Shown here in pieces: positions 1 to 6,554 of a stretch of DNA of 9,480 nt (positions are counted from its first letter, which is position 1; the number at the start of each line of letters is the position of its first letter). The notes beneath the pieces are model-generated. The model ran no database searches. It was not told the origin of the DNA and saw only the letters and a program-made list of their open reading frames with translations. A program made the translations under genes and the position numbers. Source of the stretch: JAFGIT01 sp016929465 [NCBI: Candidatus Coatesbacteria bacterium] (lineage in GTDB: Bacteria > B130-G9); contig JAFGIT010000419.1 of the NCBI GenBank assembly GCA_016929465.1, positions 1-9,480 on the forward strand. The letters run 5' to 3'.

Positions 1-2493
1 CATTTGGCCGAAATGCGAAGGAAGGCCGAGGCGATAGACGACCCCGACATCGACTTTGACTTTCCCAAGAAGGCGTGGGAGAAGGCAAAGATAGGTCGCT
101 GTTACTTCTCTCGCGAGAACGGCTTGGGGGAGCCGCTTCCGACCTTCTGCCTCAAGATACCGACCGGCGGGGGGAAGACCCTGCTTGCAATCAAGGCAAT
201 TGATCTTGTGAGTGCGATTTATCGAAAAAGACAGACCGGCTTGGTTCTCTGGATTGTGCCCACGGTACAGATCTATCGGCAGACGCTGAGAAGCCTCAAG
301 GACAGAGACCACCCGTATCGACAGCATCTCGACATAGCAAGCGCTGGACGGACGCTGATCTTGGAGAAGACAAGCAAGTTCTCGCCGCTCGATATTGATG
401 AGAATCTTGTGGTTCTCATGCTAATGCTCCCCTCCGCGAATAGACAGACGAAGGACACGCTTCGGATCTTCAAGGACAGCGGCGGCTTTCAGCAGTTCTT
501 TCCCGCCGAGGACGACATCAAAGGGCAGGAGGACTTCCTACGGACATTTCCCAATCTCGATACCTTCAATATGGAGACTGGCTTTTGGGGAAGGCAGATT
601 AAGACATCGCTTGGCAATGCTCTGAGGACTATATCCCCGATGGTCATTCTGGATGAGGGTCACAAGGCCTATAGCGAAGGCGCGCAAGAGACTCTGCGCG
701 GCTTCAATCCCTGCCTCATCGTGGAGCTGTCCGCCACTCCCTCCGAACGAAGCAATATACTCGTCGATATTACGGGCCGCGAGCTGCACGATGAGGATAT
801 GATCAAACTGGACCTCCATGCGGTAAACAAGGTGAGTCCAGAGTGGAAGGACACTCTTCTAGATGCGATAAATCGGCGAGCTCAACTCGAGAAGGTGGCG
901 ATTGAACATGGATCGCGCACCGGTATCTATATCCGCCCAATCTGCGTAATCCAGGCTGAGCGAACGGGCAAAGACCAGCGCGGCGGTAAGCACATACATT
1001 CTGAGGATGTCCGCGAGCATCTAATAAAGGTCATCGGGATTCCGGCCGATCATGTCGCAATCAAGACGAGCGAGAAGGACGAGATCAAAGAGGTTGACGA
1101 TATCGGAGGGCTTCTCTCTCCAGACTGCCAGATACGCTACATCATCACGAAACAGGCGCTTCAAGAAGGTTGGGATTGCGCATTCGCTTACGTGCTCGCG
1201 ATATTGACCAACCCCTCATCCAAGAACGCTCTCACGCAGCTTGTAGGCCGAATACTGCGACAACCTTATGCTCGCAAGACGCATGTCAAGGAACTGGACG
1301 AGAGCTATGTCTATAGCTTTCAGAGGCGCGCCGGTGATCTATTGGATTGTATCAGGAGGGGTTTCGACCGGGAGGGATTGGGCGATCTGCGAGGCCATAT
1401 CGCCGTGGATCAAGAAGAAGGCGCAAAGCAACCTTCCAAGCAGATTACAGTCAATGAGCGCTTTGCGGAAGCGGCGAGGCGAACCATCTTGCCCGTGTTT
1501 GTCGTTAGAAACAATGGTGGCTGGCGGCCCGTCAATTATGACATGGACATCCTATCTCGAATATCATGGGATCAAATCGATCTTGCGCCCTTATCGGAAC
1601 TGACGCTTTCCTCCCCCGAGACGCGCGAGGTAGAGCAGGTGATTTCGCTCTCAAATAGTAGTATATTGGGGTCGGCAGAGCTAAAGGAGTTAAGGAAATT
1701 CCAGGCAGCCGGCGCCCACGTTGATCCGTTGTTCGTGACACGCCATATCTCAGATATCGTGCCAAATCCCTGGCGGGCCTACGAAATGGCAAGGAGTACC
1801 TTGACCCAACTACGTGAAGTCCCCGGCGATAAGGACAAACGAGAGCAGCTCATTTCCAGCAATTTCACCTTCATAATATCTGAATTACGCAAGCGATTGA
1901 TGAAAGAGAGAGACCGCTTATCCAAGAGCATCTTTCGAGCCATGCTGAAGGATGATCAGCTTCGCTTCCTCGTTATTGGCAATGACATGAGCTGGACACC
2001 TCCAAAGTCAATATCCGTTCCTGCGACAGCTAAGAGACTTACAAGAGCCGATGGTGGCCAGCTTGAGCTCAACTTATTTGACTTTGTGCCCGAAGACGAT
2101 TTCAACGAGCTCGAAAAAGCTGTAGCGTGTTATCTAGAGGACCAGACACGGCTATTCTATTGGTTTCGCAACAGGCCACGACGGGACTACTATATCCAAG
2201 GTTGGAAACGGCACCGCATCTATCCCGATTTCATCTTCACGGCCTGTGATGAGGATAGAACCGAGGGGACATCCGATTTTGACAGCGTGTACGTCCTGGA
2301 GACCAAGGGATTGCATCTGAAAGATAGCGATAGAACCGCTTACACAAGTGAACTATTCGCCATCTGCACCGAGCAAGCTAAGGCTCGAAGCCTAAATCAG
2401 CTTGGCCTCGAGATAAAGGACAAGATTCTGCGCTATGAGGTCTTGGCGGAGGATGAATGGCGAGCCAGACTGAATAGCATGCTTCAGGGATGA
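1..2493 (+). CDS. Type III restriction Res-like DEAD/DEAH helicase with C-terminal PD-(D/E)XK nuclease, 5' end cut
   Basis: Probable ATP-driven DNA translocase and endonuclease of a restriction system. Counting from the TTG at position 4, visible superfamily 2 motifs are Walker A (PTGGGKT, 53-59), motif II (DEGH, 217-220), motif III (SATP, 243-246), motif V (QALQEGWDC, 384-392) and motif VI (QLVGRILRQP, 412-421). The C-terminus carries a nuclease signature: D742 in YPDF and E766-x-K768 in LETKG, preceded by an FN-x-x-E and QGW-containing stretch (about 693-740) typical of Res subunits. The frame stays open to base 1, no ribosome binding site is visible, and only about 52 residues precede Walker A, where family members usually carry a YQ-containing Q-motif region. 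The true start is therefore probably a few tens of codons to the left, and the TTG is not a trusted start. The stop overlaps the next ORF by ATGA. All key residues are intact, so the enzyme looks active. The family call is firm; the partner methylase is not settled. Confidence 0.9.
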   Translation, partial: HLAEMRRKAEAIDDPDIDFDFPKKAWEKAKIGRCYFSRENGLGEPLPTFCLKIPTGGGKTLLAIKAIDLVSAIYRKRQTGLVLWIVPTVQIYRQTLRSLKDRDHPYRQHLDIASAGRTLILEKTSKFSPLDIDENLVVLMLMLPSANRQTKDTLRIFKDSGGFQQFFPAEDDIKGQEDFLRTFPNLDTFNMETGFWGRQIKTSLGNALRTISPMVILDEGHKAYSEGAQETLRGFNPCLIVELSATPSERSNILVDITGRELHDEDMIKLDLHAVNKVSPEWKDTLLDAINRRAQLEKVAIEHGSRTGIYIRPICVIQAERTGKDQRGGKHIHSEDVREHLIKVIGIPADHVAIKTSEKDEIKEVDDIGGLLSPDCQIRYIITKQALQEGWDCAFAYVLAILTNPSSKNALTQLVGRILRQPYARKTHVKELDESYVYSFQRRAGDLLDCIRRGFDREGLGDLRGHIAVDQEEGAKQPSKQITVNERFAEAARRTILPVFVVRNNGGWRPVNYDMDILSRISWDQIDLAPLSELTLSSPETREVEQVISLSNSSILGSAELKELRKFQAAGAHVDPLFVTRHISDIVPNPWRAYEMARSTLTQLREVPGDKDKREQLISSNFTFIISELRKRLMKERDRLSKSIFRAMLKDDQLRFLVIGNDMSWTPPKSISVPATAKRLTRADGGQLELNLFDFVPEDDFNELEKAVACYLEDQTRLFYWFRNRPRRDYYIQGWKRHRIYPDFIFTACDEDRTEGTSDFDSVYVLETKGLHLKDSDRTAYTSELFAICTEQAKARSLNQLGLEIKDKILRYEVLAEDEWRARLNSMLQG

Positions 2494-2627
2494 CGAGATT
2501 CTCCCGGTTTGAGGAGTTCACGATTTGTCCGCCTTATATGAGCACCCACACGGCTCTGACCCTTGCAGAGAATGATCTTAAATTGAACTGGGCGTCATAT
2601 CGAGATCGTTATGTGGAGGACCTATGA
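2490..2627 (+). CDS. Small 45-residue ORF, coupled at both ends, unknown function
   Basis: An ATG at 2490 overlaps the helicase stop (ATGA, 2490-2493), and the TGA at 2625-2627 overlaps the next gene's ATG (ATGA, 2624-2627). The product reads MTRFSRFEEFTICPPYMSTH, then a 25-residue tail ending NWASYRDRYVEDL. It has one cysteine (C13), no membrane segment, no signal peptide and no motif I recognise. No strong ribosome binding site precedes it, which fits translational coupling to the helicase. The double overlap is the main argument that it is translated. It could be a genuine small subunit or regulator of the helicase operon, or the degraded remnant of a longer gene. It may also serve only to carry ribosomes to the DUF5647-like start. 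Confidence 0.5.
   Translation: MTRFSRFEEFTICPPYMSTHTALTLAENDLKLNWASYRDRYVEDL
2615..2619 (+). promoter_or_regulatory. Ribosome binding site of the DUF5647-like gene
   Basis: GGAGG lies four bases before the ATG at 2624, inside the end of the 45-codon ORF. It supports this start, alongside coupling through the ATGA overlap. The spacing is slightly short. Confidence 0.6.
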
Positions 2628-2896
2628 ATAACGCAGATGAAGCCATGGTTCAGAGGAACATCGAGCTGAGCGCGGAGTTCAGCAGATACCTTTTCGAGCA
2701 TCCCGAAATCGAAGCGGCCCTACCAAAAGGCGCGGAGATCGTTTTTCTTCCGGACTTCGATGTTGACCTTTGCGCGTATAACAGTCAGCTCGGCAGAGAA
2801 ATGGAGGCCAGAGGCGAGAGGGTGGTGTCCGTGCTAGTCGGGCCTTTGCGTGAGAAGATCATTTCCCGTATTGAGTCTATTGCTGTTCAGGTCTGA
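2624..2896 (+). CDS. DUF5647-like small protein
   Basis: A 90-residue soluble protein with no signal peptide or membrane segment. The layout of an N-terminal helix with EFSRYLFEHPE (about 17-27), a LPKGAEIVFLPDFD strand region (about 33-46), a helix with LCAYNSQL, and a closing VVSVLVG strand (about 67-73) resembles from memory the DUF5647 family, whose function is unknown. Length fits that family. The start is chosen from the GGAGG site and from the ATGA overlap with the preceding 45-codon ORF. It is the third gene of the helicase-nuclease unit. Possible roles are an accessory or regulatory subunit of the restriction system or an unrelated passenger; nothing in the sequence decides. The gene call is more secure than the family name. 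Confidence 0.75.
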   Translation: MNNADEAMVQRNIELSAEFSRYLFEHPEIEAALPKGAEIVFLPDFDVDLCAYNSQLGREMEARGERVVSVLVGPLREKIISRIESIAVQV

Positions 2897-3010: not shown

Positions 3011-4240
3011 TTGATACTAAAAGAGCCAATACTTGTCGGATTAACTCAGCTTGCTGCAAACAAGCTCCGCTCCTTTTTGACGATGCTTGGGATACTGATC
3101 GGCGTTGGGTCGGTGGTCGGGATTGTCTCGATTTCCGACGGTGCGAGGGCGATGCTGCTTCAGGAGATGGACAAGTTCGGCGGCAGCAATATCATGTGGG
3201 TATCGCCCCCCCATCATTGGGTCAGGCGTGACGGCCGGTGGCAAAGACGCGCGTACGACGCCTACCTCGATAATGCCGACGTCAAGCGTATCGCGGCCTG
3301 CAGTCCGCACATCAAGAGTGTGCTGCCGATGATCGGCATCGGCGGAAATGCGACCTACGAGATGAATACTTCCAGCTGCGACATAAATGGGACGCTGCCG
3401 ACGTATGCCGAGGCCATGGACTGGAAGCCCCAGAAGGGCCGTTTCTTCTCTGACAGAGATAACGCGGCGTGGCGGAAGGTCTGCGTGATCGGTGACAAGG
3501 TCTATCTGGACTTATTTCCCGATAAATCAGACCCCATCGGAAAGGATATCAGGGTTGCGAACGTCAGATGCGTCGTCATCGGGGTGATGGAGGAGAAGAC
3601 CGTATTCGGGGGCGATTGGGGCTATAACGTGTTCGTTCCCTCCTCCACTGCACAGCATAGGATGAGGGGGACCGACAGGATAAACTACATGCTCGTGAAC
3701 GTCGATAACAGCCTCAACGTCGAGAAGGCGGAGCGCCGCGTCAAATCACTTCTCAAGCGAACAAAGGACCACGGCGAGGAGTACCGGGTCACGACAGCCC
3801 AATCTGAGATAGAGAAGGTCGAATCCGCGCTTTCCATAGCGAAATTGATCACGGGCGGCATCGCGGCGATTTCGCTCATCGTGGGCGGCGTCGGAATAAT
3901 GAACATCATGCTCGTATCGGTCGCGGAGCGCACCAGGGAGATTGGCCTAAGAAAAGCGGTCGGTGCCCGCAGGAGGCACATATTCTTTCAGTTTCTGATC
4001 GAGGCGATCATACTCTGCATTATGGGTTGTATCGTAGGAATAGGGCTCGGTTTTGGGCTGGGCCTCGGGATTGCGGCTATCATCTCGAAGACCGCGGATA
4101 TGGAGTTCATGAGCGTGGTCTCCGCCAAGGCCATTCTGATGGCGGTCGCGTATTCCGTCGGGATAGGTCTCGCAGCCGGGGTGCTGCCGGCGGTCCGGGC
4201 TGCACGGCTGAATCCGGTCGATGCGCTTCGATATGAATGA
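3011..4240 (+). CDS. MacB/FtsX-type ABC transporter permease
   Basis: A 409-residue inner-membrane protein of the MacB/LolC/FtsX (type VII ABC) group. These work with a separate or fused ATPase to drive a periplasmic mechanotransmission cycle rather than passing substrate through the membrane. The four-helix layout is complete: TM1 at about 21-42, a large extracytoplasmic MacB_PCD domain at about 45-270, then TM2 (about 276-303), TM3 (about 326-358) and TM4 (about 374-397). The conserved coupling stretch ERTREIGLRKAVGA (306-319) and the ending RAARLNPVDALRYE (396-409) are intact. Length is normal for a stand-alone permease, so no ATPase domain is fused. No ATPase or MacA-like adaptor is adjacent in the window, so its partner must lie elsewhere. 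Substrate is unknown; lipoprotein, lipid, peptide or drug export are all possible for the family. Confidence 0.92.
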   Translation: MILKEPILVGLTQLAANKLRSFLTMLGILIGVGSVVGIVSISDGARAMLLQEMDKFGGSNIMWVSPPHHWVRRDGRWQRRAYDAYLDNADVKRIAACSPHIKSVLPMIGIGGNATYEMNTSSCDINGTLPTYAEAMDWKPQKGRFFSDRDNAAWRKVCVIGDKVYLDLFPDKSDPIGKDIRVANVRCVVIGVMEEKTVFGGDWGYNVFVPSSTAQHRMRGTDRINYMLVNVDNSLNVEKAERRVKSLLKRTKDHGEEYRVTTAQSEIEKVESALSIAKLITGGIAAISLIVGGVGIMNIMLVSVAERTREIGLRKAVGARRRHIFFQFLIEAIILCIMGCIVGIGLGFGLGLGIAAIISKTADMEFMSVVSAKAILMAVAYSVGIGLAAGVLPAVRAARLNPVDALRYE

Positions 4241-4367: not shown

Positions 4368-6554
4368 ATGCCCAAACGCGAATTGAGATGCCTGTGCTCG
4401 GGCGATGACTCTGCCCTTCGTATCGCGCTGCGGAAGGTCAAGACGAGACTTATTCGCTCCATGCGCAAGTCTGAAAGCGAGCTTTCTCCCTCGGATATCC
4501 TTACTCTGGCAGGGGTGCTTGTTACCTATCTTGCCAGGACCTCTCCCTCGGCGCTGAGCTCCGGCAATTGGGACGGGTCGGCGCTGCCAAGAGGTCTCGA
4601 ACAAGCGATAACGATGATCTCACCGGGCGAGTTGTCTCTCGAAGGCGAGTCGATGCATGTAGCGGTGAATCTGCTCAGAGATGGCATGCCCGGGGAGATA
4701 TGGTTCACAGACGATGTACTCGGCTGGCTCTATGAGTCGTGTTGCGAGGGCGAGAGTGCGAGGCGGATGAGGGGGCAATACTATACCCCAGCTTGGCTTG
4801 CCGAGATGCTAATCGGTCATTGTCTCGAGGCTCTGATGGAGGATGAGGGTGGCTTAGAAGGCCAACTTGACACCATAAATGTGCTCGATCCGGCATGTGG
4901 GTCTGGGAAGTTCCTACTGAGTGCCTACAACGCCCTGACAGAATCGGATTCACCGTGCACGCGACCGGGGCAAAGCGTAAGAAAAAGGCTCTTCGGCATA
5001 GACATCGATCGAAAGGCAATCGCACTCGCCGAGCTCGGCCTTGCTCTCCTCGACCTGGACCGGGGAGGCGGTTTCGAGACCGAATTCTCGAATTTCAGCA
5101 GGTCGGACTTCTTGGACAGGTCATTGGAGCCCATGTTCGGGACGGTCTCGGGCAGTGGAATTAAGGCGCGGCTCTTGATGGCGCCAGTCTCCGCCTTGAC
5201 GACCGCTTTCGACATGGTGATCGGTAATCCCCCATACCTGGGCTTCCATCACCATCCGCCCAAGTATCGGCAGAGCGTTTTGAAGGATTATTCTGTCTAT
5301 GATGGGAAGGCCGACGTGTTCTATTACTTCATCGAGCGTGGGCTCGAATTCCTTCGGGAAGGTGGTGTCTTGGGATATGTCGTGCCGAGATATTGGCTCG
5401 GAGCGGATAAGGCGATGCCCCTCCGCAGATTCCTGAGTAAATCGTGTGAGCTAGTCTATCTGCTCGATTTCGACGAGATGCAGATATTCGGGAAGGCTGG
5501 AGTGCAGGTCTGTATCCTGATCCTGAGAAAGCGACTTCCGAGGCCATCGAACGCACTCGCGGTCCACAAGGCAATTGGCGACCGGAGACGCGACTCCGCC
5601 GCATCCGGGAGATTTCCCGTCGCGGGAATAGGTGATCGAGCCCAGGGCCAATTCGAAGTGCCACAGTCACGTCTCGGCGATTTCTGGGTTCTCATCCCGG
5701 AGGAAGAGCACAAATTGATGTCGATGATCGATCGGGCCGCCGACTGCCCCCTTGGGGAGGCCGCCTCGGTCAGCCCTGGTGTGATCACCGGCCTCGACAA
5801 AATCGAGATAAAGTCTGAACGAAGCGAGCGCAGCTTCTCTGGCGTCTTCGTCCTCTCCCACGATGAGGTAGAGCGCCTGCGTCTGCTTCCAATCGAGCGG
5901 GATCTACTAAAGCCCTGGATCAAGAACTCGAACGTCTCTCGCTGGTCGGTAGGAGGCACGGATGAGTTCATACTCTATCTCGATTCGGAGCCGGACTGGG
6001 ACTCGATGCCGAATATCTCACAGCACCTGATGCGACATCGCGAGGCCCTCGAGCGGCGCTACGAGATTCCGGGCTCGGATAGGCCGTGGTGGCGGCCTGT
6101 GCGTCCAAGGCGCAGCTCTCAATTCGAGGGCGCAACGCCGAAGATTGTAGTGCCCTATAAGGCCGCCCAGAGCAGGTTTGCAGTTGATTACGGCAGGCAT
6201 TATTGCAGCGCCGACGTCTATTGCATCAATCCCATCGAGGGTGTCTTGCCGGAGTATATCTGCTGTCTGCTCAATTCGAGACTGCTCGAGTTCTACTTCC
6301 GGAGGATCGCGAAGAAGATGGGGCACGTCTATGAATACTACGCTCACACTCTCTTCAGGCTGCCGATAAAGGTAGCACCCATCTCGGATCAGTTGAGATT
6401 CAAGGCGATGCACGATGAGATCGTCGCCGCGCTCTCCGGTCGAGACGCGGGTTCATCGGGATCGGACAGAATGGCGCAGGCGGAGCAAGCTCTTGGACAG
6501 GCGGTTTTTGACCTGTATGGACTGGATGCTCGGGACTTCGGGAGCAATCCATAG
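4368..6554 (+). CDS. Eco57I/TaqI-like adenine-N6 DNA methyltransferase with target-recognition-like C-terminus
   Basis: Transfers a methyl group from S-adenosylmethionine to adenine N6 in a specific DNA sequence. Visible motifs are GQYYTP (136-141, motif X region), DPACGSG (174-180, motif I, AdoMet binding), FGIDID (209-214, motif II) and NPPY (287-290, catalytic motif IV). The C-terminal part resembles the TaqI specificity domain: WW-RP (574-578), KIVVPYKA (592-599), LLNSRLLEFYF (from about 634), then a YEYY segment and LPI. N-terminal residues 1-110 match nothing I know, and no PD-(D/E)XK nuclease is apparent, so at 728 residues this looks like modification plus specificity without cleavage. 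An in-frame stop at 4341 leaves ATG 4368 as the first usable start; its ribosome binding site is weak (GTGAG). The upstream helicase-nuclease could supply cleavage, making a mixed restriction-modification system; alternatively this is an orphan methylase. It converges on purF. Confidence 0.9.
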   Translation: MPKRELRCLCSGDDSALRIALRKVKTRLIRSMRKSESELSPSDILTLAGVLVTYLARTSPSALSSGNWDGSALPRGLEQAITMISPGELSLEGESMHVAVNLLRDGMPGEIWFTDDVLGWLYESCCEGESARRMRGQYYTPAWLAEMLIGHCLEALMEDEGGLEGQLDTINVLDPACGSGKFLLSAYNALTESDSPCTRPGQSVRKRLFGIDIDRKAIALAELGLALLDLDRGGGFETEFSNFSRSDFLDRSLEPMFGTVSGSGIKARLLMAPVSALTTAFDMVIGNPPYLGFHHHPPKYRQSVLKDYSVYDGKADVFYYFIERGLEFLREGGVLGYVVPRYWLGADKAMPLRRFLSKSCELVYLLDFDEMQIFGKAGVQVCILILRKRLPRPSNALAVHKAIGDRRRDSAASGRFPVAGIGDRAQGQFEVPQSRLGDFWVLIPEEEHKLMSMIDRAADCPLGEAASVSPGVITGLDKIEIKSERSERSFSGVFVLSHDEVERLRLLPIERDLLKPWIKNSNVSRWSVGGTDEFILYLDSEPDWDSMPNISQHLMRHREALERRYEIPGSDRPWWRPVRPRRSSQFEGATPKIVVPYKAAQSRFAVDYGRHYCSADVYCINPIEGVLPEYICCLLNSRLLEFYFRRIAKKMGHVYEYYAHTLFRLPIKVAPISDQLRFKAMHDEIVAALSGRDAGSSGSDRMAQAEQALGQAVFDLYGLDARDFGSNP

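What the first reader, a model, noticed from the sequence alone, without database searches (positions are those of the whole stretch)
2490..2627. 45-codon ORF joined by ATGA overlaps on both sides
Seen: ATGA at 2490-2493 joins the helicase stop to this ORF's start, and ATGA at 2624-2627 joins its stop to the DUF5647-like start. An exact stop/start overlap at each end of a short unannotated frame is unlikely by chance and implies translated coupling. The peptide matches nothing I recognise, and genes this short are usually missed.
Basis: partly seen in the sequence, partly recalled or inferred. Interest (0 to 1): 0.6.

Follow-up and report, generated by a model that had tools for sequence, protein, structure and literature searches.

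The report
Stub of a DUF7718 gene
The short reading frame is the leftover tail end of a longer gene that in related bacteria is the first half of a two-gene, toxin-antitoxin-like pair, and this first half has been eroded repeatedly while the second half was kept.

Summary
In detail: a 45-codon frame (2490-2627) is joined by ATGA at both ends. It is not an unknown small gene. Its last ~25-29 codons match the C-terminus of DUF7718 (profile 72-100 of 104, E 3.4e-4, below the curated cut-off). In G001, of the same family, a full 105-aa DUF7718 gene lies in exactly this place before DUF5647. Of 52 DUF5647 loci, 32 have full-span DUF7718 directly upstream. In others it is stopped, frameshifted, internally deleted or reduced to a C-terminal stub, as here, while DUF5647 stays. 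The 3' ATGA is therefore inherited; the 5' ATGA with the Res stop arises at the junction. The stub keeps a predicted helix, 3 of 15 invariant residues and the Shine-Dalgarno-like site of DUF5647. Best reading: a decayed toxin-like gene kept as leader of its antitoxin-like partner. The stub is near certain; the toxin-antitoxin role is inferred from overlap, one-sided decay and a second small partner, and failed a sequence test against TumE. Neither DUF was named in the papers searched.

The parts
2490..2627 (+). 45-codon ORF: 3' stub of a DUF7718 gene joined to a non-homologous start
2490..2493 (+). 5' ATGA, Res stop / ORF start; the 72%-identical Res of G002 ends differently (GACTGATGG)
2494..2531 (+). 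junction stretch without recognised DUF7718 homology; homology begins between 2532 (Pfam match, codon 15) and 2557 (DNA match to G001)
2532..2621 (+). DUF7718 C-terminal tail; 2553-2621 (ALTLAENDLKLNWASYRDRYVED) aligns without gaps to G001 and falls in the predicted C-terminal helix
2615..2619 (+). GGAGG, Shine-Dalgarno-like site for DUF5647 inside the stub
   Evidence: read from the sequence
2624..2627 (+). 3' ATGA, ORF stop / DUF5647 start; inherited kind of overlap
2624..2896 (+). DUF5647 gene, intact; antitoxin-like partner of DUF7718 (role inferred)
   Evidence: PF18882, E 7e-25
1..2493 (+). type III restriction Res subunit, cut by the contig start; upstream neighbour at the junction

Best explanation
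Shown: the ORF is the 3' remnant of a ~105-aa DUF7718 gene of the kind that stands directly before DUF5647 in relatives. The first ~70% of DUF7718, with the whole predicted beta-sheet and 12 of 15 invariant residues, is missing; the C-terminal helix codons, a GGAGG and the stop/start overlap with DUF5647 remain. Shown: DUF7718 is broken or missing at many loci where DUF5647 is kept. Inferred: a rearrangement set the 3' end of a type III Res gene beside the tail. Inferred: DUF7718 is the toxin-like and DUF5647 the antitoxin-like member of a toxin-antitoxin pair, so losing the first is tolerated. Inferred: the stub survives because it carries the ribosome-binding site and stop/start coupling of DUF5647; ribosomes ending Res at 2493 may restart at ATG 2490, run through 45 codons and restart again at 2624.
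For: Pfam match to DUF7718 positions 72-100. Of 60 genomes searched with the peptide the only strong hit outside the window's own genome is the DUF7718 C-terminus of same-family G001, 59% over 27 aa, E 4.3e-6; full gene E 6.8e-33. DNA homology to G001 runs from 2557 through DUF5647. No other DUF7718 piece in the window's genome at E<=1. 386 genomes: 10 of 11 DUF7718 loci over the cut-off stand directly before DUF5647. 48 genomes chosen for holding DUF5647: 60 of 64 full-span DUF7718 hits directly before DUF5647, 7-42 nt between matches; of 98 full-span DUF5647, 55 have full-span DUF7718 (2 with an internal stop), 18 a broken or partial one, 25 none by Pfam. Upstream of 34 loci lacking an intact gene, a DUF7718 piece is recognised at E<0.05 in 17. 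The 4 full-span DUF7718 without DUF5647, and L246, have another small overlapping gene. AlphaFold of an intact DUF7718: pLDDT 96.5, six strands plus helix 77-104; invariant residues.
Against: The ORF's Pfam score (20.9 bits) is under the curated cut-off (25). No experiment shows that DUF7718 is toxic; Pfam gave no TumE hit, hhalign to TumE at most 7%, and Foldseek no PDB match at E<=0.001 (best VIA-align Z 5.6). In 17 of 34 loci without intact DUF7718 no remnant reached E<0.05, so those may never have had it. Most loci are metagenome assemblies, so single frameshifts may be errors. Choosing genomes for DUF5647 inflates the asymmetry, and looking only before DUF5647 favours finding 3' remnants. 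The tails show no measurable decay.
Confidence: 0.85

Rival explanations
1. The stub is still a working mini-gene: a translated coupler or a 25-45 aa helix peptide (for instance one that binds DUF5647), kept by selection.
For: Tails of 12 loci, window included, are as similar to intact relatives as DUF5647 divergence predicts (mean difference +0.036 against +0.040 in 33 intact loci, one-sided P 0.43; 9 broken loci left out). 7 of 12 have an in-frame ATG before a stop, 3.3 expected, P 0.026. In the window tail 17 of 27 differences from G001 are third-position.
Against: Badly decayed tails would not be recognised. At least two of the seven ATGs look like native DUF7718 codons (L091, L235). With ATG/GTG/TTG the excess is 9 of 12 against 6.4, P 0.11. 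L084, L108 and L231 have no start before a stop. L081 and L094 seem to keep only a few codons (by eye; no score). Two of the 12 (L235, L236) keep further DUF7718 pieces in other frames.
Confidence: 0.2
2. A new short gene arisen de novo between Res and DUF5647, unrelated to DUF7718.
For: The first ~14-20 codons match nothing recognised.
Against: DUF7718 homology of the rest in the frame and position of an intact relative.
Confidence: 0.02
3. Assembly artefact: Res and the DUF7718/DUF5647 locus wrongly joined within 2494-2557.
For: The genome is a draft of 423 contigs. The 72%-identical Res of G002 has no DUF5647 behind it.
Against: No missing 5' part of DUF7718 elsewhere in G000 at E<=1, though that genome is only 86% complete; similar stubs occur in other assemblies.
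Confidence: 0.08
4. DUF7718 and DUF5647 form an ordinary two-subunit complex, not toxin-antitoxin, with one dispensable subunit.
For: No toxicity data; no significant fold match to a known toxin.
Against: Patchy distribution (10 of 386 genomes over the cut-off), one-sided loss, a second small partner, toxin-antitoxin-like neighbours at 6 of 20 loci plus G001 without a control set.
Confidence: 0.35

Closest known systems
DUF7718 (PF24839)
   Same: Residues 15-43 of the ORF match profile 72-100; same position before DUF5647
   Different: Lacks the first ~70% of the domain; 3 of 15 invariant residues left
TumE-TumA toxin-antitoxin (PF20126; PMC10584680, passages read)
   Same: Small alpha+beta protein in a two-gene unit with more than one kind of partner; an RYD..H motif that resembles TumE by eye
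   Different: No Pfam TumE hit among 31 DUF7718 proteins at E<=1; hhalign at most 7%; DUF7718 comes first, whereas the paper reports DUF6516 predominantly downstream of its partner
Orphan antitoxins of degraded toxin-antitoxin loci (PMC7354431, passages read)
   Same: Partner kept while the toxin-like gene decays
   Different: Neither member has a shown activity here
Termination-reinitiation at ATGA/TGATG overlaps (PMC6728339, start of abstract seen in a search listing)
   Same: ATGA stop/start overlaps at both ends
   Different: Coupling not measured here

Membership tests
DUF7718 (PF24839) | Match over the Pfam gathering score (25 bits) | tested here: not met
   20.9 bits, profile 72-100 of 104; filed as a remnant, not a member
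DUF7718 remnant | Homologous C-terminal residues in the frame and position of an intact relative | tested here: met
   G001, 59% over 27 aa, full gene directly before DUF5647
Independent short gene | No longer intact homologue at the same place | tested here: not met
Type II toxin-antitoxin (DUF7718-DUF5647) | Two small adjacent or overlapping genes found together | tested here: met
   60 of 64 full-span DUF7718 hits in 48 genomes; 10 of 11 loci in 386 genomes; the sets share at least three genomes
Type II toxin-antitoxin (DUF7718-DUF5647) | First protein toxic, second neutralises it | not testable with these tools
   needs expression in E. coli
Type II toxin-antitoxin (DUF7718-DUF5647) | Toxin-like gene lost more often than its partner (supporting, not strictly defining) | tested here: inconclusive
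   43 of 98 full-span DUF5647 lack full-span DUF7718; 4 of 64 full-span DUF7718 lack DUF5647, and these 4 have another small partner; but the genomes were chosen for DUF5647
TumE (PF20126) | Sequence match to TumE | tested here: not met
   none among Pfam hits at E<=1 for 31 DUF7718 proteins; hhalign at most 7%
TumE (PF20126) | Shared fold | not tested

The most novel reading that the evidence does not exclude
DUF7718-DUF5647 is an undescribed toxin-antitoxin family in which the toxin gene is repeatedly cut down to a short translated stub, kept by selection as a leader ORF or helix peptide that secures expression or stability of the now solitary antitoxin.
Probability: 0.15. Interest if true: 0.6.

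Novelty: new member of a known kind. Interest (0 to 1): 0.4.

Why it matters
It turns an apparent orphan micro-gene into a readable gene fossil and points to a two-gene module, DUF7718-DUF5647, that looks like a toxin-antitoxin system and was not named in the papers searched. The many decay states give a natural series for asking which part of a toxin gene must stay to keep its antitoxin expressed.

Tried and rejected
Looking for the rest of DUF7718 in other frames of 1901-2900 found nothing convincing. Rfam: no match in the window. One DUF7718 protein against viral contigs, plasmids and phages: no relative. PHROGs: no match under E 0.01. PADLOC: of 9 proteins only Res matched. NCBIfam on 31 DUF7718 proteins: seven families, each in one member, best E 0.0093. 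Pfam on the same 31: besides DUF7718, 15 families in 1-3 members each, the best RNA_pol_inhib in 3 members, E 2.7e-4; taken as chance. Profile searches of PDB sequences: nothing under E 0.05 for DUF7718; for DUF5647 two chains of designed or repeat proteins at E about 1e-5 without a passing stretch, not followed.

TumE homology was tested and not established. Fold searches of DUF7718 gave no PDB or viral match at E<=0.001 and VIA-align Z up to 5.6; a family absent from those lists is not excluded. The DUF5647 model resembles 2dbs (TTHC002; Foldseek probability 0.98, but E 0.10); only a paper search followed.

Enlarging the genome set around G308 and G153 gave only 9 and 2 genomes.

Full report
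Observation. The frame 2490-2627 is open for 45 codons and shares ATGA with the Res stop (2490-2493) and with the DUF5647 start (2624-2627).

What it is. Pfam finds DUF7718 in the ORF, profile positions 72-100 of 104, E 3.4e-4, 20.9 bits against a cut-off of 25. Of 60 genomes searched with the peptide, the one strong hit outside the window's own genome is G001 of the same family, 59% over 27 residues, E 4.3e-6; the next is at E 0.16. In G001 the peptide is the end of a 105-aa gene, a full DUF7718 (114 bits), directly followed by DUF5647, stop and start overlapping. The same order holds in three genomes of other families. DNA homology between window and G001 starts at 2557 and runs on through DUF5647; the Pfam match starts at 2532; before that no homology was recognised. 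The window's genome has no other DUF7718 piece at E<=1. So the ORF is the 3' stub of a DUF7718 gene.

Where the rest went. The Res homologue of G002 (72% identical over 427 residues) ends at about the same place, so the window's Res seems to have its natural end. Behind it in G002 lies an oppositely oriented gene that I take for trkH by eye (no call), and G002 has no DUF5647 at E<=0.01 and no DUF7718 at E<=1. The simplest history, inferred, is a rearrangement that set the end of a type III restriction cassette beside the tail of DUF7718. The 5' ATGA is then a by-product of the junction: with the ATG fixed, 49% of base shuffles of 2494-2549 stay open. The 3' ATGA is of an old kind: of 40 loci including the window, 30 overlap (10 by 4 nt, 15 by 8 nt), 9 have gaps of 1-13 nt, 1 gave no start.

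Survey. In 52 DUF5647 loci, a profile grown from four intact proteins finds: 32 with full-span DUF7718 directly upstream in one frame; 5 whose match begins only at profile position 17-23 (one of these, L079, lies 230 nt away); 4 split by a stop or frameshift (L072, L080, L089, L106); 4 with the C-terminus only (L084, L091, L108, L109); 7 with no hit directly upstream (L070 at a contig end, L095 beside masked bases, L078, L081, L094, L110, L111). In the 48 genomes of 49 of these 52 loci, 60 of 64 full-span DUF7718 hits are directly before DUF5647; of 98 full-span DUF5647, 55 have full-span DUF7718 (2 with an internal stop), 18 a broken or partial one, 25 none.

I then scored the upstream stretch of 34 loci lacking an intact gene, window included: a DUF7718 piece is recognised at E<0.05 in 17 of 34. 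They include C-terminal tails (for example L221, L228, L231, L232, L233; L243 weakly, E 0.014), a beginning ending at the RY of RYD (L237), a beginning run straight into DUF5647 (L218), and a nonsense codon at profile 72-73 (L072). L227 looks like an internal deletion but scores only E 0.067. L078, L081, L094 and L208 seem by eye to keep a few last codons without a score. The other loci show nothing, for example L216, L222, L226, L229 and L242.

Across 386 genomes, 10 of 11 DUF7718 loci over the cut-off stand directly before DUF5647 (one DUF5647 cut by the contig end), and 4 of 14 DUF5647 loci lack full DUF7718: window, G032, G153:C3, G189. This set is not independent of the 48: at least G004, G032 and G060 are the same genomes by coordinates. 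The 48 genomes were picked for DUF5647, so their asymmetry is inflated, and keeping of the 3' end is partly expected because only stretches before DUF5647 were examined.

Second partner. The 4 full-span DUF7718 genes without DUF5647, and L246 where DUF5647 lies further off, are each followed by an overlapping small ORF (49-71 aa, overlap 4-31 nt, starts chosen by me). These share a weak motif (L...G..EI; mean column identity 41% in 5 sequences) and have no Pfam match better than E 0.12. TumE toxins too are described with diverse partners (PMC10584680, passages read).

Structure. Intact DUF7718 of L063 is predicted with pLDDT 96.5 as six strands and a C-terminal helix 77-104. In 31 proteins 15 residues are invariant: R16 F31 Q34 E36 W43 R48 Y49 D50 H53 H57 D59 K69 D87 W92 Y95. 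The stub keeps the helix and the last three. If DUF7718 is an enzyme, its likely active site is gone. DUF5647 is predicted with pLDDT 93.

Mechanism. DUF7718 as toxin and DUF5647 as antitoxin is the reading that best fits overlap, patchy spread (10 of 386 genomes over the cut-off), one-sided decay, second partner and toxin-antitoxin-like neighbours (nucleotidyltransferase with or without HEPN, RelB-like, PIN or HicB at 6 of 20 loci, plus G001; 38 of the 40 neighbours listed and two genes of G001 were scanned, no control set was run). It is not proved: TumE similarity failed the sequence tests, fold searches gave nothing significant, and no toxicity is known. I put toxin-antitoxin at about 0.55 and the stub at above 0.9; the 0.85 given covers the stub with its retained ribosome-binding site.

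Is the stub still used? Tails of 12 loci, window included, show no measurable decay against DUF5647 (+0.036 against +0.040 in 33 intact loci, P 0.43; 9 broken loci left out). 7 of 12 have an in-frame ATG, 3.3 expected, P 0.026, but with all three start codons 9 against 6.4, P 0.11. Recognition bias favours well-kept tails, and two of the 12 (L235, L236) keep further DUF7718 pieces in other frames. In the window the tail's dN to G001 (0.25) is like that of DUF5647 (0.22); dS of the tail could not be computed. The truncation is recent or the tail is constrained. This is open.

Literature. No paper in the held library names DUF5647, DUF7718, PF18882 or PF24839. Orphan antitoxins left by decayed loci are a known idea (PMC7354431, passages).

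Noticed in passing
window 4368-6554: Eco57I/TaqI-like N6 DNA methylase with a specificity domain, separate from Res, with a MacB/FtsX-like permease between them.
   Followed up: no
window 3011-4240: MacB_PCD/FtsX permease gene; I recognised no ATPase partner among the ORFs of the window (not searched for).
   Followed up: no
L218 (G404:C26), just before DUF5647: First ~33 residues of DUF7718 run in frame straight into DUF5647, as if an internal deletion had fused the pair.
   Followed up: partly
L238, L239, L240, L241, L246: DUF7718 genes with a different, unnamed small overlapping partner gene.
   Followed up: partly
DUF5647 model m09cdab4ced98 (L063 3001-3273): Resembles 2dbs, Thermus thermophilus TTHC002 (Foldseek probability 0.98, E 0.10, 27% identity).
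   Followed up: no
L076 246-1838: Two DUF7718-DUF5647 pairs in tandem with equal scores, apparently a recent duplication.
   Followed up: no
L107 2-3013: DUF7718 lies at the end of a frame open for about 1004 codons; fusion or assembly oddity.
   Followed up: no
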